Source: Catenaria anguillulae PL171
Lineage: Eukaryota > Blastocladiomycota > Blastocladiomycetes > Blastocladiales > Catenariaceae
Direction: 5' to 3'
Length of the DNA stretch: 64,000 nucleotides
Assembly (NCBI GenBank): GCA_002102555.1
Contig: MCFL01000071.1
Coordinates: forward strand, 59,328-123,327
Shown here: piece by piece, positions 8,174 through 63,470 of the stretch
Layout of the letters: each line of letters begins with the position of its first letter
Position numbering within the stretch: the stretch's first letter is position 1
Translations under genes and position numbers: made by a program
The notes under the pieces: generated by a model
Seen by the model: the letters and a program-made list of their open reading frames with translations, nothing else
What the model was told of the DNA's origin: nothing
The model's database searches: none

Positions 8174-9007
8174 TCAACATCCAACCTGGCTCGCACTCAC
8201 TTCAATGACATCCCCATGCACCAGTTCCAGGTCGTTGACTGTCCTAGACTCACGATCCTTCCACTCTCCCTTCCAAAGCAGAGTCCCATCGAAGTCAAAC
8301 CGGAAGTCCTCCATCATGGCGCCCTTCTTGTCGGCATACGCCTTGACAATTTTGTCAAACGGTGCTGACGAGCGGACATTAAACTCCATCTCAGATCCGG
8401 TTATATCACGGAGTCTGAGATTGATGCGGTCCGACAACCTACAATATACGGCAGGGAAAGGAGGCACGTTGAGTGACAATACTTGAGCGAATCGAGTAAG
8501 CGAATAGGGCGTGCCGTGTGCATACTCGAGGCCGGTCTTGTTGGCAGCTGCCGACGGCAACTTGGGTAGTTCCAAGCCCATGTCCCACACACGCGCATCC
8601 ATGTCGGGCCCAAACCGGGCCTTGTACAAATCCACCGTGTTTTGACGGCGGCGGGCACGGTTGGCGGCGTCTTGGGCGTTGGCGCCATCCGGGTCATGAT
8701 GAATCCAAAGGCCGATGGCCAAGCACATTGGAATGTAGGATTGGGTGTCGAGGATGTGGTCATGCCAGACTTTGTCAATCATCGGCGAGGGAGACAAGAG
8801 CTTGGCATGTTCGTCGCGGTGAGCATACTTGAGCACCAAGAACCGACGGTACTCGCGCTCGAGGATGTTGGCATCAACCCTCGGAAACTTGACTTCCAAG
8901 CGGCGACGGAGGGCGGTGAGGTCCAGACCGTAACGCCATTCGAGCAGGTAGGCAATTGGGTCGGCGACCGTTGCGACGAGCGAATCAGAGGCGGTGGTGA
9001 TGGCCAT
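8174..9007 (-). CDS. GRDP-like (DUF1399-type) domain fused to a SUMO-like domain (GRDP1)
   Basis: A single exon of 277 aa starts at ATG 9007 (MAITTASDSLVAT), the start shared by all family members here. Residues about 10-150 form a GRDP-like domain, with EYRRFLVLKYAHRDEH, then KVWHDHILDTQSYIPMCLA and a WIHHDPDG motif; the invariant Trp-His and His residues are the family signature. Residues about 195-277 resemble SUMO (FDGTLL, then LELVHGDVIEV) and end in SQVGC rather than a Gly-Gly. The molecular role of GRDP domains is not settled. The SUMO-like tail suggests protein-protein interaction or a modifier-like fold, which is inference. It is divergently paired with the PEX1-like gene, 260 bp apart. 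Confidence 0.7.
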   Translation of the reverse strand: MAITTASDSLVATVADPIAYLLEWRYGLDLTALRRRLEVKFPRVDANILEREYRRFLVLKYAHRDEHAKLLSPSPMIDKVWHDHILDTQSYIPMCLAIGLWIHHDPDGANAQDAANRARRRQNTVDLYKARFGPDMDARVWDMGLELPKLPSAAANKTGLEYAHGTPYSLTRFAQVLSLNVPPFPAVYCRLSDRINLRLRDITGSEMEFNVRSSAPFDKIVKAYADKKGAMMEDFRFDFDGTLLWKGEWKDRESRTVNDLELVHGDVIEVSASQVGC

Positions 9008-54612: not shown

Positions 54613-55293
54613 ATGGCCATCACCACCGCCTCCGACTCCCTCGTCGCAACGGCCGCCGACCCAATCAAGTTCTTGCTAGCATGGCGGAACGGTCTGGACC
54701 TCAACGCCCTCCGTCGCCGCTTGGAAGTCAAGTTCCCAAGGTTTGACATCGACCTCCTCGAGCGCGAATACCGCCGCTTCTTGGCCTTCAAGTTTGCTCA
54801 TCGCGACGAGCATGCAAAGCTCTTGTCTCCCTCGCCGATGATTGACCAGGTTTGACACAAGCATGTTTTGGACAAGTCATACATTCCCATGTGCTTGGCC
54901 ATTGGCTTGTGGATTCATCATGAGCCGGATGGCGCCAACGCCGAAGACGCCGCCAACTGTACCCGCCGCTGCCAAAATACTGTGGATTTGCACAAGGCCA
55001 GGTTTGGGTCAGGCATGGATGTCCGCGCGTGTGAGATATGGGGGGCAACGACCGGTTTACCATCTGCTTCCGTGACCAACAAGCCGGATCCGAAGTCGAT
55101 TTCAAAGTCGACTTGACGACCAAGATTGACAAGGTCGCACGTATATATGCCGAAAAGATGGGGCTGGATGTGCAGCAATTGCGTTTCGACTTCGATTGGA
55201 CTCGCATCAGGAGGGAGTCCGGCCAGACCATCGAGGAGCTTGACCGAGGATGGGGATAGGATTGATGTGACCATCAACCAGTGCGGTTGCTGA
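54613..55293 (+). pseudogene. GRDP-SUMO-like pseudogene (GRDP2)
   Basis: It starts at ATG 54613 (MAITTASDSLVAT) and is closest to GRDP1. TGG is replaced by TGA at 54853-54855, destroying the Trp of the V-W-H motif, so only 81 residues would be made. Further lesions are a three-base in-frame deletion (Thr-Gln to Lys) and frame changes around 55030 and 55245. The SUMO-like part is still readable (ICFRDQQAGSEVDFKVDLTT), and the end (IDVTINQCGC, stop 55291-55293) keeps the family Gly-Cys terminus. Confidence 0.75.
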
Positions 55294-55563
55294 GCAATTG
55301 ATGTACTTTGGAGTAATGCAATCGTTATTCTGGGCACGACACAGAGTCGCTCGTGGTCGCTCGTTGCTGTCGCCGCGAGTCGGAAGACGAGACGTTTTTG
55401 TTGTGGCAAGCAGACTCGAGCCAGTCAGTATACGAGGGCAGCCACCAGAAACCTCTGGCATGAAGCATGGCGACACATGTCCCACCACCGCAAACACCCA
55501 TACCGTCATGATACTTTAAGCAATTCCGCCCACCCAACTCGAGCAACCCCCACCCAAGCCGTC

Positions 55564-56487
55564 ATGTCCATCGCCACCGCTTCCGATTCGCTCGTTGCCA
55601 CCACGGCCGACCCAATCAAGTTCTTGCTCAACGATCTCAACCTCGAGGGCGTGACTCGCCGCCTCGAAACAAAGTACCCAACGCTCGATATCCAGCTCAT
55701 GGTCAAGGAATATCGCCGTTTCCTCGTCCTCAAGTACGCGCATCGCGACGAGCACGCAAAACTCGTATCGCCGTCGCCTCTCATTGATCAGGTTTGGCAC
55801 GAGCATGTTTTGGACACGCAGTCATACATTCCCATGTGCCTCGCCGTCGGCCTGTGGATCCATCATGACCCGGACGGCGCCAGCGACCATGATGCCGCCA
55901 ATCGTGCCCGCCGCCGCGAAAACACGGTCGATCTGTACACGGCCAGGTTTGGGCCAATGGACCAAGACGTGTGGGACATGGACGGCGTGCGTCGGCCGTA
56001 CTTGCGGGGCAAAGGTCCGTCGCAAGGCCACAGTGAGGCGAGACGTAAGCGCAAGGCCGAGAGTATTGAGTTGGCGTTGGGAAAGGGGAACGCCGCAGCG
56101 AGTGCCGGCGTGCATGATGCGATCGGGTCAGCCACCAAGAAACAACGGTATGTGCCGATTGATGAACGTGTCAAGCATCATTTTTTTTTTGTCCCCCTCA
56201 CTCTTTTGCTTTGCTTCTAATTACATGACGCAAATAGCCAATTGACCCGTTGTTCCATTCGGTTTCGCGACCAGACTGGATCCGAGGTCGAGTTTCGTGT
56301 TAGCAGGACGACCACGTTTGCTCACATTGCCAACGGATACGCCGATATCAAGAAGCAACCGGTAGAGGATTTTTGGTTCACGTATGATGGCAGCCGGCTC
56401 AGAAAGCATGACGAGGCGACCTTGGAGGACTTGGACTTGCAAGATGGGGATGTGATTGATGTTGGCCTGTTGCAAATTGGGTGCTGA
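55564..56487 (+). CDS. GRDP-like domain fused to a SUMO-like domain (GRDP3)
   Basis: Exons 55564-56147 and 56238-56487 join in phase (donor GTATGT, acceptor CAAATAG) to 277 aa, the same length as GRDP1. The GRDP-like part (about 10-150) has EYRRFLVLKYAHRDEH, QVWHEHVLDTQSYIPMCLA and WIHHDPDGA. A basic linker (ARRKRKAES, ATKKQR; about 160-195) could be a nuclear localisation signal. The SUMO-like part (about 197-277) has RFRDQTGSEVEFRV, YDGSRL and LDLQDGDVIDVGLLQIGC. The intron falls exactly between the two domains, consistent with fusion by exon joining. It is an intact neighbour of the pseudogene GRDP2, in tandem. Confidence 0.7.
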
Positions 56488-56567
56488 GTCACTTGTCATG
56501 CCGGACTTGCTGTTGGACATGCATGGCGAGTCTTACAAGCGCAATTCTTTCAACTTATTAATCAGCC

Positions 56568-57327
56568 CTAAAGGAAGCCACGGTATGGGACGATACTCAG
56601 TTGTTGCACCGACCGTCCGAGTGTCCGTCGACCAATGTAACACACACCCACAAACGCACAGATGATGGAGCCAGCGATGTATGTAATGACCAAAATGATA
56701 ATCGGTCGAACATAAGTCAAATAATTGACGGTGCCAAGGCCATACAAACCGCCAGGCGCACAGGCACCCATGGCAAAAAAGGGGTGCGCGGGTAAGACAG
56801 AGATTAGGTCGATTGAACAAGAAGGCCACAAACAAACAGCAAACGAGCAGGGAAGGGGAAGAACAAAAGGAAACAAAAGACAAAAAAAGGGACAGAGGAA
56901 AGAGACCAAGTTGCCCCTCGCACACACGACCGCATCGTGCTTCAGTCACGGTACACGCAGTGACCGAGCTCGAAAAAAGTGGTGTGCGTGGAAAGTCTGA
57001 AGCATTCCACGGTCAACTGACAAGGGGAAACAATGGGTACGCCAAAGGAGGGTGGAGGGGACGGGAGGGGGGCAGAAAGCAAAGGACGGAAAAACACAAA
57101 ACAAACAAACCCTCCACCGAATATGCAGCCCGAACGCAGAGAACGGAAGAATGAACCCAAACAAGGACACGCCGACAAGCACCACGACAACGAATGCGTA
57201 TAGCATCCAGGACTTGGGGACCGATAATGAGCGACAAGGTTCCGACCAAGCCTTGCTGGATCTGCCAGATCAGAATCAAATACTTGACCCTTGCTCCCGC
57301 GAACATGCTGACGCGCGCTTGTGCCAT
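56568..57327 (-). other. Possible small multi-pass membrane protein, structure unresolved
   Basis: Three hydrophobic blocks lie on the minus strand. They are VKYLILIWQIQQGLVGTLSL from ATG 57327, a second in another frame around 57170 (YAFVVVVLVGVSLFGFILPF), and YLTYVRPIIILVITYIAGSI ending at 56568. A pyrimidine-rich, intron-like stretch (56800-57110) separates the last two. The first two are in different frames without room for an intron, so there is a frameshift or my reading is wrong. No family was recognised. Confidence 0.3.
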
Positions 57328-57793
57328 GATGTAAAATGATGTAGTTCTTCAAGAGCGCACGACCAACCGACTGGGTGACCGCGGTATGTATACACGAGCT
57401 TTTCTGTCTGTCACAGTACCCAATTAGTCAAGTGTCAGGACATGAGCTGAACAACGAGCAGGTCCCATACGCAAAAGAGATGAGCTTGGAAACGAACCCC
57501 CATGATCATGATCAAGCGTGCCTTTGGTGTACTACAGTATCAGCGATCCGGCGCGCTGGTGTGTGATCTGGAGTTGTGCGAGTGAGTACATGGGCGGTCC
57601 AAGGCATGATTGGAGACCAGACCTTCGAGAATGAGTCGACGTACCAAGAGAGAATGATGAATGGCAAGGTGCCAATACGTCGCCCATCTCTCACTCATCC
57701 GCCATCCGAGTCAATGCGCTCATACTGGCTTTCCACTTTGCCTTTGTCCACTTCTTCACCCATCCCACCCCCCCAATAAAAACAACCCGCGTC
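57328..57793. other. Intergenic region of about 465 bp
   Basis: Nothing is supported here. Short minus-strand frames (57512-57694) have hydrophobic stretches but no recognisable structure. An AATAAAAAC word near 57776 precedes the relic gene. Confidence 0.4.
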
Positions 57794-58250
57794 ATGTCAG
57801 CTCCTGTCAACGACGCCGCTGCTGCCCAAGCTCAAGCCCAAGCCTAAGCCCAAGCTCCCGACAATGCTGGCCAAGCCCAAGCCCAAACTCCCACCGACGA
57901 CGCCCCTCTCGCTGCTGCCGACGAGGAGGGAGCGATGAAGCCGAAAACAATGACTAATTGTTGCTCGCACTGTCACCGTCGCACTTGAAGGAAATGCACA
58001 GGTCTTTACACAACCCTTGCCGGCAACTGCACTGCACACAGCCAGCACGGCACCATCCCTGCAGCTCCAGAAATACACGTACGCCTGTCATGCTTGGACA
58101 CGGGGCTTTGTACATTCCTATGTGCCTCGCCAGTGGCATCTGGATCCACTCTAACCTGGCTGATGCCGACGCCAGCAATGCAGATGATATCAATTTACCT
58201 ACGCCGCGAAAAGACGGTGCTAGTGGGAAATGCCATGTTTGCATTCGGAT
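57794..58250 (+). pseudogene. Relic with Ala-Gln hexamer repeat and a GRDP fragment
   Basis: ATG 57794 opens MSAPVNDAAAAQAQAQA and then hits TAA at 57845. GCCCAA-type hexamers continue to about 57890, followed by an Ala/Asp-rich stretch. At 58093-58200 the DNA matches the GRDP core (TTGGACACG...TACATTCCTATGTGCC), readable as ALYIPMCLASGIWIHSN. There is no intact frame. It is a degraded GRDP-family copy, perhaps joined to another gene's 5' end. Confidence 0.5.
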
Positions 58251-58354
58251 GACGATCTTGCGATGCATTCGATAGAGCAATTGGGAAGCCCACTTCAACG
58301 CATCAGTTCTACTGGTAACACTGACATCGACAATATAGCCAAAAACAAAAGGAA

Positions 58355-59407
58355 TCACACAATCTGTCCGTCCGGTTTCTGCTTTCCCACATGAGCAACT
58401 GACTTGCCATAGACTGCTTCCGTCTGAACGCCAGCTGATGCCATCTCCGAAGCCATCGTCGCCCTGGACTTGGACTTCCAGTCTTGTCCTCGGCTCAATG
58501 TCGCAAATGTGCTAGCCAGAATGACACACGTATTCTCGATGGTGAATTGAACATAGGCACCGCCGGCGAAAAAGTTGGCCAGTGCGAGTGATGATGTAAG
58601 AAAGTAGGTCAAAACAGCGAGTAAGATGCGATACATGACCGAGCGCAGGGCCTGGTTGAGCCGGTCACCCGCGGCATGCTGGTCTTGTCCCATGGTGACT
58701 GTAGTCAAGCAATCGTTTGCGCCCGCTCGAGTTGCTTCGGCACCAGCCCGATCGGGGACTTGGGTACTGTCGGATCCACCTTGTTGTGCAGGAACCGGCT
58801 TCTTGACCAGAAATCTCCAAGCGCTATGCCTGGCAAGCGCAGTGACATACGTTACGCCAATAAGTGCATATGTTGCCAAATATGCCACTTTTCCCATGAC
58901 ATTGATTGATTGATCCGGCACGTAAAGACATCGGTCGGTAGCCAAATTGATTCCCCATTTCCCACGCACTTGACTCGTGACAATCAGGCACCATCCGATG
59001 CTAAAAACCACACTTATGCAGACACGCACTGGACGTTTCGAAAGCATCCATTCCTTTGTGCCCGTGACTAGTCCAATCGATGATGGCAGAAGTGCCGTGA
59101 CTCGAAACAAGAGCACCAAGACTGCAATGGGCTGCATCATGCCAAAGAGAATTGGCGGAATAACAGTCACGGCGACGCAGCCGCGACTAAATTCAATCGA
59201 GCTTGCGGGAACGACTAGAATCAGCAGAAAGAATATTTGGTTGGCGAGGTGCAGAAGTGCCGCGATGGCCTGGGCGGCATACACTGAGCGACGCCGCGAG
59301 TGTTGCCGGCGCCATTCCACACAGCATGCGAGTGCGAGCGCAGACGCGGGGACGAGGGATGTCGCAACCAGAATGGTGACGATTTCTGGGTTCCACAGTC
59401 GATTCAT
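58355..59407 (-). CDS. Seven-helix membrane protein, GPCR-like layout
   Basis: A single exon of 350 aa starts at ATG 59407. Hydrophobic segments fall at about residues 9-30, 43-66, 78-104, 130-148, 172-192, 256-275 and 281-303, giving seven helices. A long polar loop lies between helices 5 and 6 (about 200-250), and a Ser/Lys-rich tail of 45 residues ends in KPDGQIV. There is no signal peptide. This topology fits a G-protein-coupled receptor, but no class signature was recognised, so a transporter-like or sensory membrane protein is possible. The 3' end and flank are repeated at 63777-64000 in the same orientation. Confidence 0.6.
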   Translation of the reverse strand: MNRLWNPEIVTILVATSLVPASALALACCVEWRRQHSRRRSVYAAQAIAALLHLANQIFFLLILVVPASSIEFSRGCVAVTVIPPILFGMMQPIAVLVLLFRVTALLPSSIGLVTGTKEWMLSKRPVRVCISVVFSIGWCLIVTSQVRGKWGINLATDRCLYVPDQSINVMGKVAYLATYALIGVTYVTALARHSAWRFLVKKPVPAQQGGSDSTQVPDRAGAEATRAGANDCLTTVTMGQDQHAAGDRLNQALRSVMYRILLAVLTYFLTSSLALANFFAGGAYVQFTIENTCVILASTFATLSRGQDWKSKSRATMASEMASAGVQTEAVYGKSVAHVGKQKPDGQIV

Positions 59408-60134
59408 GATTCACAAACGGTTTGGTGAAGATTGCTCGGGTGTGTTTCAATCTTGGCCGAGACGAGGTTGTAATTGCATGGACTGACGCAACAATGATAT
59501 TTGGCGAGCTCGCCCGCCTACATTTTTCCAGAGACTTGAGGGTATGATGGCACCCAATTGACATGCACGTATTGTGGAATCTGTTGCTGTTTGCAGCAAA
59601 ACGATGCCACATGAGGTCTCGGTGCCAGCGTGGAAAGATCGATTCAAGTCTGACCCCGAGCATTTGTGTTCCATTACTTAAGACGAACTTGATCATTGAA
59701 CGGACTGGGATATGTGCCGGTACAGCGGCCGTTGTGGTAATCGGGCAAAGCCGTCAAAAGATGCTATTCGGCAAGTGTCCAAAGCTGCTGAATCCATGAA
59801 TTCCATACCTAACTGCAATATCTGCAGTCAACCCACCCCAGTCCCAAACCATCGCTGGTCCAAAGCATCCGCACCCATTAGTCCATGCAAGACTATTTTT
59901 GATTCCAATCCGGCGATAAGAGTCCGTGCAAGGCAAATCCGACAGCTAGTCAATTATTTACTTCGCCTGTGTCGATTTGACAATGATCTGAACTGAAACA
60001 CATATGCCTAGTGTGTGAGAGAGGCACGAGCATCCTCGTTGTCCGAACGAATATCCCTATGCCGCTCCATTTTGCTGTACATTTCGGAACAGTCACTACA
60101 TGTACCATACCCATTCTCTCCCGTCCCGCCTGAA
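59408..60134. other. Intergenic region of about 730 bp
   Basis: It lies between the seven-helix gene and the 3' end of GRDP4. No coding frame with recognisable content and no repeat was seen. Confidence 0.5.
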
Positions 60135-60947
60135 TCAACAACCACCTTGTTGTTTGACAACCTCGAGAGTGTCTCCCTCCTCGACATTCAACTCCCTGAC
60201 TGACGACTCTGCATCGGGCTCGATACGATTGTCGTGGACATAAAAGCGCCAGCACCCAACACTCAACCCATGCGCATTGAGAAACGCAGCCGCAATGGCC
60301 CGAAACGGGGTCGACTCGGTCACTTGCATGAACGAAGTGTAGCCCTCTGTGCTTTCCACGCGGATCGTGAATCGCTTTTCCGCCCTGCGCCGTTTCGCAG
60401 CACGACCATCTGCCTCCTCGTCGCTTGCATCCTCGACATCCTCCTCAATCTCATCATGCAGCCGAATCAATCCCGTGCGGGTCGTGGCGGGTGGTGCCCT
60501 GCCGGGCAAATACGGCCGACACATGCCATCCATGTCCCACACGTCTTGGTTCATTGGCCCAAACCTGGCCGTGTACGAATCGACCGTGTTTTCGCGGCGG
60601 CGGGCACGATTGGCGGCGTCATGGTCGCTGGCGCCGTCCGGGTCGTGGTGGATCCATAGACCGATGGCGAGGCACATGGGAATGTATGACTGAGTGTCCA
60701 AAACATGCTCGTGCCAAACCTGATCAATGAGAGGCGACGGCGACAGGTGTGTTGCGTTTTCGTCACGATGCTCGTACTTGAGGACGAGGAAACGGCGGTA
60801 GTCCTTGACCATGAGTTGGATATCGAGCGTTGGATACTTTGCTTCGAGGCGCCGAGTCACGCCCTCGAGGTTGAGCTCGTCGAGCAAGAACTTGATTGGG
60901 TCGGCCGTGGTGGCGACGAGCGAATCGGAAGCGGTGGTGATGGGCAT
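60135..60947 (-). CDS. GRDP-like domain fused to a SUMO-like domain ending Gly-Gly-Cys (GRDP4)
   Basis: A single exon of 270 aa starts at ATG 60947 (MPITTASDSLVATT). The GRDP-like part is intact (DYRRFLVLKYEHRDEN, QVWHEHVLDTQSYIPMCLA, WIHHDPDGA). The linker (about 160-190) is acidic (EIEEDVEDASDEEADG) and then basic (AAKRRRAEKR), NLS-like. The SUMO-like part (about 190-270) has RFTIRVESTEGYTSFMQVTE, VREL and EEGDTLEVVKQQGGC. Its end, Gln-Gln-Gly-Gly-Cys, resembles an unprocessed SUMO (QQTGG plus tail). Unlike GRDP3 it has no intron between the domains, and it lies on the opposite strand. Confidence 0.7.
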   Translation of the reverse strand: MPITTASDSLVATTADPIKFLLDELNLEGVTRRLEAKYPTLDIQLMVKDYRRFLVLKYEHRDENATHLSPSPLIDQVWHEHVLDTQSYIPMCLAIGLWIHHDPDGASDHDAANRARRRENTVDSYTARFGPMNQDVWDMDGMCRPYLPGRAPPATTRTGLIRLHDEIEEDVEDASDEEADGRAAKRRRAEKRFTIRVESTEGYTSFMQVTESTPFRAIAAAFLNAHGLSVGCWRFYVHDNRIEPDAESSVRELNVEEGDTLEVVKQQGGC

Positions 60948-61624
60948 AGTCGAGGGCTGTGAGCGTTGGTGATGGGAAATTGCGTGTGAGTGGTGGGTAG
61001 CAAGCCGGATGCATTAACTTACAGAAGCATGAATACACGTGAGTTGTCGGATGCATACGCTTTTATTGAGCCTGTGGCAGCGGGCGCGCCTCGATGCTCT
61101 TCCCGCAGAAGTGAGACATGAAGACGGTGGACGGAAACCTAAATGGTAGCCTATCTCAGCCGGGCCGGGAAAACTCTGATCGCGGCAGTCGAGAACCTCA
61201 ACCTCAACCTAACCGCAATCATGAGCCCGAACTGGAGCCAACTCACCGAGCATGCCCGTGCGTGCAGCAACCTGACCCGCCTGACAACCCAATCCACGAC
61301 AAAGGGCTCATGTTGGCCCAATTAGGTAGAGAGTTCGGCTCGAGCTCGTCGAGCAACGTCCTCCAACTCACAAACGTCAACGACAAAGTTGTGATGGCGG
61401 TGTCGAGACTGTGCACGTTCATGTCCAAGACAATATTACACAAAAATATGATAATGATATAAGTAGTAGGAACGTGGCCGTGAGATTAGGGGAGTGAATC
61501 ACCCAAGTCGGTCCTGCCGCCGGTGCACGTTTCCGTCCTGTGGCCTTTAAACTATCTGCCGCTGCCCGCTCACATGCTGCCTCTTAGTTGCCACATCCCT
61601 CGCACTGCTCACCACCGATACAAT
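60948..61624. other. Intergenic region of about 680 bp
   Basis: There is no supported gene. It contains AACCTCAACCTCAACCTAACC near 61195, which is not a telomeric array. Confidence 0.5.
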
Positions 61625-62164
61625 CTACTCCACCACTGATAAAAGCCACTCGGCAGACTCGTCTTCCTTGGGGCTCATCTCCCGAGCCACTGCGGCCGAC
61701 GACGCAAACGGATCTATGCCTGGCAAAAACGGCATGTTGAACCCTTCCATGTCCCACACACTCTGATCCATGGGCCCAAACATGGCCATGTACATGTCGT
61801 TGGTATTGGCCCGACGACGTTCCCGGTCGATTGTATCCTTGTCGTCCGCGCCGTCAGGATCATGATGAATCCAAAACCCAATCGTGAGGCACATGCCAAT
61901 GTACGACCTGGTTTCGAGAATGTGCTCATGCCACACTTGGTCAATCATGGGCGAGGGCGACACGAGCGTGGCGTGCTCGTCGCGGCTCGCATACTTGAGG
62001 AGGAGGAATCGGCGGTATTCGCTGACCAGCATGTCCACGTCGAGCGTGGGGTATGTGGAGCGGAGCCGGCGAGTCAGGGCCACAAGATCCAGGTCGTGGA
62101 GCAGAAAATGGGTTGGGTCGGCGACCGTGGCGGTCAATGAGGTGGACGACAAGGCGATAGACAT
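61625..62164 (-). CDS. GRDP-like protein without the SUMO-like tail (GRDP5)
   Basis: A single exon of 179 aa starts at ATG 62164 (MSIALSSTSLTATVADPTHF). The GRDP-like core is complete (EYRRFLLLKYASRDEH, QVWHEHILETRSYIGMCLT, WIHHDPDGADDKD, MFGPMDQSVWDMEG). It ends in EDESAEWLLSVVE, with no SUMO-like sequence after it. No plausible SUMO-like exon was found in the downstream 600 bp. It is either a natural tail-less form or a copy that lost the second exon. It is the second of three minus-strand GRDP copies in a row. Confidence 0.65.
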   Translation of the reverse strand: MSIALSSTSLTATVADPTHFLLHDLDLVALTRRLRSTYPTLDVDMLVSEYRRFLLLKYASRDEHATLVSPSPMIDQVWHEHILETRSYIGMCLTIGFWIHHDPDGADDKDTIDRERRRANTNDMYMAMFGPMDQSVWDMEGFNMPFLPGIDPFASSAAVAREMSPKEDESAEWLLSVVE

Positions 62165-62979
62165 TACGCAGTGGTGGTGAAGGGAATGCTTTCAGTAGGT
62201 TGCTGGAAACTGCACACGCGGACTGACACAGAAGCCAAAGAGAGAGACCGCCATCGGTCATCGACGAGCCAGTACTCTTTGTGTTTGAACGGCCCAGAGA
62301 CCGAGCCAACAGCAAGTTGCAGCACTCGGCTCCTCGTAGTCCGCAGCGTATGCATGTTACATACAGAATTCAAAGTCTTACCTATCATCCTTCCCGCAAT
62401 ACATGTACAAAAATCCGATCGCCCGTCTTCCATCCCAACCCCTCATCTCCACACACTTGCGTCGGATCCCTCACAATCGCCTAGCCGTGCCGTTCCCTTC
62501 ACCGCCAACGTCGACACCTCTTTTCACAGCATCCTTTTTGCAAGCGCCCGAAACTCCAAATGGACGCGGCATATTCGTCCTCGCGACCGTCGCTCACATC
62601 TTCAATGGTGATGTTGTGCACAATGTTGTTCAACGACGGTTGAGTTGGCAAGTCGGAGGCGGGCGAGGTGGATGGGGAGACAAGCAAAGAGACAGTGGGA
62701 CGAGGTGTGGGCGAAGAGAATGAGAATGAGGACGACCCGCGTCAGAGCGATGGTGGAGTACATGCAAGAGATCATGGCTTGAGGGTGATGTCGATGGACG
62801 CGGCAGAGCTGGCCAAGGCGATTCCAAGGAACGAGGGTCGATGTGGACGGGGTCCGATTCGCTTGTCCTACGCCATTTTCGCCCTGGACTCTCACGGCAG
62901 CGGAGGATCTTTCAAGCCGCTGGTCACGCAAGGCAGCCTGTCCTTTAAGCGGAGGGCAGTCGACAATGTGAATGAGCCG
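62165..62979. other. Intergenic region of about 815 bp
   Basis: It holds the upstream flank of GRDP5 and the downstream flank of the GRDP6 relic. Open frames here are Ser/Pro-rich or random. Nothing is supported. Confidence 0.45.
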
Positions 62980-63470
62980 ATCGCGAAGGCCGCAATGACG
63001 CTTGAACGCAGAGTCTCCTCTCCAAAGTCCCAGACCCTTTCGTCCATTGCGCCAAACTTGGCAAGGTAGCGCTCCTTGGTGTTTTGCCGGCGGCGCCTGA
63101 GATCGAATTCATCTTGAGTTTCGACGCCATCGTTGGGTGAATGATGATCCACATGCCAATGGCCAAGCACATGGAAATATATGACGGCGTGTCCAAGATG
63201 TGAAGTCGCCACGCCTGCTCAATCAATGGCGGCGGCAACAACAGCGTTTTCTTGCTCGTCAAAGGAGGTGAACTTGAGGACGAGGAACTGCCGGTACTCC
63301 TCGACAACGAGGTTAGCGTTGACCGTGCGTCCGATGTCACCTTGCAGGAGTCGAGCAAGACCAGACAGATCGAGGTCGTGAAGCAAATATCGGGCAGAGT
63401 CCGAGACGGATGGAACGAGCGAGTCGGAAGTGGCACCATGGTCAAAATCTCATTGCTCGTGGGTGTCGGC
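62980..63470 (-). pseudogene. GRDP-family pseudogene (GRDP6)
   Basis: Pieces of the GRDP domain follow each other in changing frames. They are DSARYLLHDLDLSGLARLLQ and VVEEYRQFLVLKFTSFDEQ, then IEQAWRLHILDTPSYISMCL, then RRRRQNTKERYLAKFGAMDE and VWDFGEE. At least two frameshifts are needed, and there is an in-frame TGA after the first part. No SUMO-like segment was found. It is closest to GRDP5 in the opening (LLHDLDL). Confidence 0.65.

What the first reader, a model, noticed from the sequence alone, without database searches (positions are those of the whole stretch)
54613..63470. A clustered family that fuses a GRDP-like domain to a SUMO-like domain
Four copies (8174-9007, 54613-55293, 55564-56487, 60135-60947) carry the same two-part layout: a GRDP-like region with the W-H-x-H...YIPMCLA core, then a basic linker, then a SUMO-like beta-grasp domain. 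One copy lacks the tail and two are relics, so the family is expanding and decaying locally. In one copy the intron falls exactly between the domains. I know of no described GRDP-SUMO fusion. A fixed modifier fold on a GRDP domain could act as a built-in SUMO mimic that docks on SIM-containing partners.
Basis: partly seen in the sequence, partly recalled or inferred. Interest (0 to 1): 0.8.

Follow-up and report, generated by a model that had tools for sequence, protein, structure and literature searches.

The report
Cysteine-tipped ubiquitin and SUMO fusions
A fungal gene family joins a bacterial-type helical domain to a ubiquitin or SUMO domain whose last glycine, normally used to tag other proteins, has become a cysteine, and fused proteins from a diatom and an amoeba show the same change.

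Summary
The fusion is real. In Catenaria anguillulae PL171, copies A, C and D carry a helical head, a linker and a SUMO fold above Pfam's cut-off; in AlphaFold's model of D, 182 of 270 residues have pLDDT 90 or more. The head fails the PF07173 cut-off, but is homologous to GRDP domains and labelled PF27765 in the database.

Two things were missed. A second cluster on another contig has ubiquitin instead of SUMO tails. And the modifier's last glycine is a cysteine, directly before the stop. Of Catenaria copies whose head and tail read through to a stop, 6 of 7 end in Gly-Cys; so do 3 of 4 fused proteins found elsewhere. Five Gly-Cys ubiquitin-type tails were aligned: 4 keep Arg72-Leu73-Arg74-Gly75.

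Published UbG76C, Bacteroides BfUbb and UBL3 all form disulfides through C-terminal cysteines. Best reading: a non-conjugatable pseudo-modifier whose thiol can bond to ubiquitin/SUMO-pathway cysteines. The mechanism is inferred, not shown. Main rival: the cysteine serves the head, since 36 of 48 bacterial or unassigned relatives also carry cysteines near their C-termini.

The parts
8174..9007 (-). Copy A: head plus SUMO-type tail; exons 9007-8526 and 8438-8174, intron 8525-8439; 248 aa, ends QVGC; terminal Gly-Cys codons 8182-8177
   Evidence: intron absent from gene model P0002
54613..55293 (+). Copy B: relic (TGA, frame change) with SUMO-type tail ending QCGC
55564..56487 (+). Copy C: head, basic linker, SUMO-type tail; exons 55564-56147 and 56238-56487, intron 56148-56237 inferred; 277 aa, ends QIGC; terminal Gly-Cys codons 56479-56484
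58090..58200 (+). Relic fragment of the head (YIPMCLASGIWIHSN)
60135..60947 (-). Copy D: intronless, 270 aa; head about residues 15-140 (60905-60528), SUMO-type tail about 190-270 (60380-60138), ends QQGGC; terminal Gly-Cys codons 60143-60138
61625..62164 (-). Copy E: head only, 179 aa, no ubiquitin-like tail
62945..63470 (-). Copy F: relic of the head (stop, frame changes)

Best explanation
Shown by sequence: a eukaryotic family in which a GRDP-like (PF27765) helical domain is followed by a SUMO or ubiquitin fold whose last glycine is a cysteine directly before the stop. Inferred: the tail is a pseudo-modifier. It keeps much of the C-terminal strand by which ubiquitin or SUMO is recognised, cannot be conjugated by the normal Gly-Gly chemistry, and puts a thiol where the last glycine's carbonyl would sit in the active-site channel of pathway enzymes. 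Through that thiol it can form a reversible disulfide with their catalytic cysteine, or with another cysteine, and so park the GRDP-like domain on the modifier machinery or hold that machinery back, most likely under oxidising conditions.
For: Catenaria copies whose head and tail read through to a stop: 6 of 7 end in Gly-Cys, four SUMO-type and two ubiquitin-type. Fused proteins from elsewhere: 3 of 4, from a diatom, an amoebozoan and an unassigned contig. Glycine, cysteine and stop codons differ between copies. In the five Gly-Cys ubiquitin-type tails aligned, overall identity to host ubiquitin is only 38-53%, yet R72-L73-R74-G75 is kept in 4 of 5 and K48 in 5 of 5. C and D have nearly the same head (dN 0.058, dN/dS 0.25) but very different tails (dN 0.86, dS saturated), and both end in Gly-Cys. 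Precedents: UbG76C bonds to the Ube2S catalytic cysteine and to some DUBs; natural cysteine-ended BfUbb makes a covalent complex with human E1 seen under non-reducing conditions and inhibits ubiquitination; UBL3 is reported to modify proteins by disulfide through C-terminal cysteines.
Against: No protein, transcript or chemistry was examined. Copy Z (open 381-aa frame, diverged tail) ends Asp-Arg-Gly, and the Allomyces protein P0004 has a degenerate tail without Gly-Cys. D reads Gly-Gly-Cys, so a spared Gly-Gly with a one-residue tail is possible there. Catenaria's free SUMO1 seems to end GGCC (splices inferred), so the cysteine of its SUMO-type tails could be inherited from a SUMO precursor. 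The SUMO-type tails keep only 21-36 of 66 residues of free SUMO1. P0036 lacks the RLR. DUBs vary in their reactivity with UbG76C, and in one of the two DUB structures the bond was to a non-catalytic cysteine. The cytosol is normally reducing.
Confidence: 0.4

Rival explanations
1. The cysteine serves the head, not the ubiquitin system: this domain family works with a flexible C-terminal Gly/Cys arm (metal or thiol chemistry), and eukaryotes recruited ubiquitin or SUMO as a ready-made arm.
For: Of 48 other hits (bacterial or unassigned), 36 have a cysteine in the last 15 residues against 0 of 48 in residues 2-16, many in Gly-Cys-rich tails. Three of four bacterial loci found directly also encode Cys-rich ends.
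Against: It does not explain why both ubiquitin and SUMO were taken or why RLRG is kept. The ubiquitin-type heads have lost the first His of W-H-x-H (FWEQH, FWEHH, FWRTH, LWELQ, FWKEH). The bacterial tails carry several cysteines, not one; 12 of 48 have none in the last 15, mostly ending in a probable membrane helix or truncated.
Confidence: 0.25
2. Fixed, non-conjugatable docking domain: the tail binds partners that recognise SUMO or ubiquitin surfaces, and the cysteine only blocks conjugation.
For: Fold and Pfam matches; I44 and K48 kept in X10, X12 and P0036, V70 in X7, X10, X12 and P0011.
Against: Any residue or truncation would block conjugation, so the repeated cysteine is unexplained. 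Surface residues vary (I44 is Asn in X7; D and the diatom protein lack the EF/DF-x-V stretch).
Confidence: 0.2
3. Precursor: the cysteine is a one-residue tail that is cleaved off, exposing a glycine for conjugation, so that the whole fusion becomes a modifier.
For: D reads QQ-Gly-Gly-Cys, and free SUMO1 seems to end GGCC. The UFM1 precursor, with a Ser-Cys tail after its last glycine, is a recalled analogy.
Against: In A, C, X7 and X10 only one glycine would be left.
Confidence: 0.07
4. Neutral decay of a duplicated gene family; Gly-Cys is an inherited accident.
For: Several relics and broken copies; inverted duplication and copies on other contigs; tails evolve fast.
Against: Heads compared give dN/dS 0.14-0.25 (0.41 for the recent pair A-A'); the same end recurs on very different tails and in other phyla.
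Confidence: 0.08

Closest known systems
BfUbb, ubiquitin homologue of Bacteroides fragilis (PMC3352274; abstract, Results part 1 of 2 and Discussion read)
   Same: Natural ubiquitin-like protein with cysteine at the C-terminus and no terminal glycine pair; E1-contact residues kept.
   Different: Stand-alone, with a signal sequence, bacterial, thought to come by horizontal transfer; no GRDP-like head, no SUMO version.
UBL3/MUB (PMC6158211; passages read)
   Same: Ubiquitin fold used with C-terminal cysteines; the authors report modification by disulfide.
   Different: Two C-terminal cysteines, membrane-anchored; here one cysteine is the last residue, on a fusion protein.
Engineered ubiquitin G76C (PMC4734694, PMC10619426; passages read)
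   Same: The same replacement of the last glycine by cysteine.
   Different: Laboratory mutant; here natural, and in SUMO too.
PF27765/PF07173 GRDP-like proteins of bacteria, fungi and plants
   Same: The head: EYRRFL, W-H-x-H and IHH/LHH stretches.
   Different: The bacterial or unassigned members read here end in Gly/Cys-rich or other Cys-bearing tails, a probable membrane helix or other short tails; none was seen with a ubiquitin fold. Fusion was seen only in P0004, P0010, P0011, P0036 and Catenaria.

Membership tests
GRDP-like PF07173 | Profile score above the curated cut-off (22.7 bits) | tested here: not met
   13.2, 13.8, 14.4 and 14.6 bits for A, C, D and E
GRDP-like superfamily | Homology of the head to bona fide GRDP domains | tested here: met
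   Fungal plus bacterial head profile finds the genome's GRDPs at 57.8 and 49.7 bits, best of 400 shuffles 8.0; the fungal-only profile gives 11.8 and 10.9 against 3.2; L066 protein 27.1 bits for PF07173. Three proteins in the larger profile themselves carry a PF07173 label.
PF27765 | Match to the Pfam model | tested here: met
   Precomputed database label on D (P0001), on E (P0003) and on 49 of 54 hits. The model is not in the Pfam copy at hand, so I did not score it.
SUMO modifier | SUMO fold and PF11976 score | tested here: met
SUMO modifier | C-terminal Gly-Gly, exposed or exposable | tested here: not met
   Gly-Cys-stop in A, A', B and C. D reads Gly-Gly-Cys-stop, so it is open for D.
Ubiquitin | PF00240 score | tested here: met
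   40.8 bits in X7 and 49.1 in X10; 61.4 in P0036
Ubiquitin | C-terminal Gly75-Gly76 | tested here: not met
   Gly-Cys in X7, X10, X12, P0011 and P0036
UBL3/MUB | Prenylation-type C-terminal box, cysteine four from the end (recalled) | tested here: not met
   Cysteine is the last residue
BfUbb-like cysteine-ended ubiquitin | Disulfide with E1 through the terminal cysteine | not testable with these tools
   Only the terminal cysteine is seen in sequence; the chemistry needs protein

The most novel reading that the evidence does not exclude
Eukaryotes carry a conserved class of thiol-terminated ubiquitins and SUMOs: GRDP-like proteins whose Gly-Cys end makes redox-reversible covalent links with ubiquitin/SUMO-pathway cysteines or client cysteines, a disulfide-based counterpart of ubiquitination evolved for both modifiers.
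Probability: 0.25. Interest if true: 0.92.

Novelty: new variant of a known kind. Interest (0 to 1): 0.74.

Why it matters
Ubiquitin and SUMO are defined as modifiers by their Gly-Gly end. Here a natural family keeps the tail up to that point and replaces only the last glycine by cysteine, for both modifiers and in more than one phylum, at the very place where chemists put a cysteine to trap E2s and DUBs. If the thiol is used, it makes a simple question testable: do eukaryotes use cysteine-tipped modifiers as redox-gated inhibitors or tethers? It also gives a lead on GRDP-like domains, whose molecular role is little known as far as I recall: many of their bacterial relatives carry C-terminal cysteines too.

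Tried and rejected
Poly-SUMO genes: tandem PF11976 hits on C108, C403 and C20 looked like poly-SUMO; their 76-residue period and sequence are ubiquitin.

PF07173 as the family of the window copies fails its cut-off. NCBIfam and PHROGs, asked for D, E and the X7 head, gave no family. PADLOC, asked only for three ORFs of bacterial loci, gave two weak hits for a metallo-beta-lactamase-fold ORF and nothing for the GRDP-like protein.

Protein search with X7 residues 1-150: none of 111 candidates at E <= 10. Viral contigs scanned with A3, P0011 and A6: 61, 5 and 35 stretches matched a pattern, none confirmed. Phage records with P0036: no match. So the giant-virus proteins that Foldseek matched were not read and their ends are unknown.

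Scan of viral contigs for ubiquitin ending Gly-Cys-stop: 2 stretches, neither ubiquitin; the Gly-Gly-stop control: 2, both ubiquitin. Too few to conclude.

PDB match for the head: none among the rows shown, which the tail fills; the head alone was not modelled (both jobs used). First model of D, with six sequences: mean pLDDT 54.9, head poor.

Tree of heads (26 sequences, 125 columns, some partial; supports 21-100): P0010, P0011 and P0036 fall outside the Catenaria ubiquitin-type cluster; P0036 pairs with P0049 (92), P0004 joins the Catenaria ubiquitin-type cluster (89). Depth is too poorly resolved to say how often tails were captured.
Full report
WHERE IT IS. The window is contig C427:59328-123327 of a 41.07-Mb assembly. 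P0002, on a contig of the same length (123,327), is BCR44DRAFT_45268 of Catenaria anguillulae PL171, a blastocladiomycete fungus.

WHAT THE HEAD IS. By score it is not PF07173: 13.2-14.6 bits against 22.7 in A, C, D and E, and none of the 20 PF07173 places listed for the genome lies on this contig. A profile of fungal and bacterial heads scores the genome's own GRDPs, which are not in the profile, at 57.8 and 49.7 bits, best of 400 shuffles 8.0; the fungal-only profile gives 11.8 and 10.9 against 3.2. A Zhongshania protein found with the heads (tblastn 39% identity) scores 27.1 bits for PF07173. So the head is GRDP-like by homology and PF27765 by label.

THE FAMILY IS LARGER AND HAS TWO KINDS OF TAIL. 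On contig C334 there are copies whose tail is ubiquitin: X7 (248 aa) 40.8 bits and X10 49.1 bits for PF00240, cut-off 25.4. Frame-broken copies X12 and X13 lie on the same contig. Other pieces lie on C114, C241, C57 and C425. C114 carries A', a near-copy of A beside a near-copy of the neighbouring ATPase gene.

THE LAST RESIDUE. The SUMO-type tails of A, A', B, C and D, and the ubiquitin-type tails of X7, X10, X12 and X13, end in Cys-stop after a Gly. By spacing the cysteine stands where the last Gly of the modifier stands; in D a one-residue shift would instead give Gly-Gly followed by Cys. Counting only Catenaria copies whose head and ubiquitin-like tail read through to a stop, in one frame or across the junction intron, 6 of 7 end so: A, A', C, D, X7 and X10; Z (381-aa frame, diverged tail, 18.6 bits with my own tail profile) ends Asp-Arg-Gly. 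X10 lacks the first helices in its open frame. A and A' are a recent pair. Of the broken copies, B, X12 and X13 keep Gly-Cys; Y2 on C334 and its near-copy on C241, the C241 near-copy of Z, and the pieces at C334:429 kb and on C57 do not. Codons for Gly, Cys and stop differ between copies. Among other ubiquitin and SUMO genes read here, one polyubiquitin ends GGQ, a ribosomal-type fusion continues past GG, and two free SUMO genes end GGCC and GGKY by splices I inferred. As a rough background, 4 of 72 window ORFs of 150 aa or more end in Cys; A and D are among them.

OUTSIDE CATENARIA. Four hits pair the head with a ubiquitin-like tail. P0010, from the diatom Leptocylindrus danicus (taxid read in its name), has a SUMO-type tail (33.0 bits) ending LSGC. 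P0036, from the amoebozoan Planoprotostelium fungivorum, has a ubiquitin tail (61.4 bits) ending PLTGC. P0011, from an unassigned 1,193-bp contig, has a ubiquitin tail ending RLRGC. P0004, from Allomyces arbusculus, has a degenerate tail (16.3 bits, under cut-off) and no Gly-Cys. That is 3 of 4. Foldseek against viral models aligns long stretches of a Terrestrivirus protein (208 aa, named ubiquitin-like domain-containing) and a Gaeavirus protein (252 aa), and the head of a Harvfovirus protein named glycine-rich domain-containing protein-like. The rmsd of the first two is large, as expected if two domains are placed differently. Most other rows shown there cover about 80 columns, the size of the ubiquitin-like part. 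I did not get these sequences.

CONSTRAINT. Five Gly-Cys ubiquitin-type tails were aligned with host ubiquitin (X7, X10, X12 in part, P0011, P0036), together with relic Y2; Z, X13 and P0004 were not. The five are 38-53% identical to ubiquitin over the aligned residues, but R72-L73-R74-G75 is kept in 4 of 5 (not P0036), K48 in 5 of 5 and V70 in 4 of 5; Y2 keeps RLRG and has Arg at 76. C and D have heads 92% identical in DNA over 448 nt with dN/dS 0.25, but tails with dN 0.86 and saturated dS: either heads were homogenised or a tail was exchanged, and both still end in Gly-Cys. Other heads: dN/dS 0.14 (A-C), 0.16 (D-E), 0.19 (A-E); 0.41 for A-A' over the whole gene.

HOW IT MAY WORK. In print: UbG76C was linked by disulfide to the Ube2S catalytic cysteine (PMC4734694, passages); its reactivity with DUBs varies, and in one of two crystal structures the bond was to another cysteine (PMC10619426, passages). 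BfUbb, a natural bacterial ubiquitin ending in cysteine, gave a covalent complex with human E1 seen under non-reducing conditions and inhibited ubiquitination (PMC3352274). UBL3 is reported to modify proteins by disulfide through C-terminal cysteines (PMC6158211, passages). From these and the anatomy I infer a pseudo-modifier whose thiol sits where the glycine carbonyl would, able to bond reversibly to pathway cysteines and so tether the GRDP-like domain or hold back the enzyme. None of this chemistry has been shown for these proteins.

MAIN RIVAL. The cysteine may serve the head: of 48 bacterial or unassigned hits 36 have a cysteine in the last 15 residues and 0 in residues 2-16, many in Gly-Cys-rich tails. 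This joins the bacterial and eukaryotic members under one idea, but does not explain the choice of both ubiquitin and SUMO or the kept RLRG.

PRIOR DESCRIPTION. The listings (open-licence PMC papers; titles and abstract starts, capped lists) show no GRDP or PF27765 fusion to ubiquitin or SUMO and no natural eukaryotic ubiquitin or SUMO with cysteine for the last glycine. Most subscription papers and bioRxiv preprints are not in that library.

Noticed in passing
window about 8.7-22.6 kb and 43.3-54.9 kb: Large interrupted inverted duplication (up to 99% over its pieces) holding an AAA-type ATPase and long proteins with DVLDWW-like repeats (family names recalled); copies A and B sit in its two arms.
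   Followed up: partly
L033 and L028 (C64:36.1-39.2 kb): Two free SUMO genes side by side; by inferred splices one precursor ends QVGGCC and the other QIGGKY. The GGCC end could be the source of the cysteine in the fused SUMO-type tails.
   Followed up: partly
L015 (C108) and L017 (C403): Near-identical tandem polyubiquitin genes on two contigs, one read as ending GGQ; perhaps a duplicated or twice-assembled region.
   Followed up: no
P0024, P0028, P0029, P0033, P0034, P0042: GRDP-like proteins, one named as Telluria, whose tails are repeats such as AWCGAPSK, AFCAYPGK or AWCAAPGK; peptide-array-like tails of unknown use.
   Followed up: no
L066 and L069, with L067: Bacterial GRDP-like genes share neighbours by eye: two small unnamed ORFs upstream in L066 and L069, a ParE-like ORF in L066 (45.4 bits) and a similar one in L067; three of the four loci (L066, L067, L068) encode Cys-rich C-termini.
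   Followed up: partly
BFVD A0A3G4ZPD8, A0A3G4ZYS9, A0A3G5A0N6: Predicted structures of giant-virus proteins resemble the two-domain fusion or its head; sequences and last residues not seen.
   Followed up: partly
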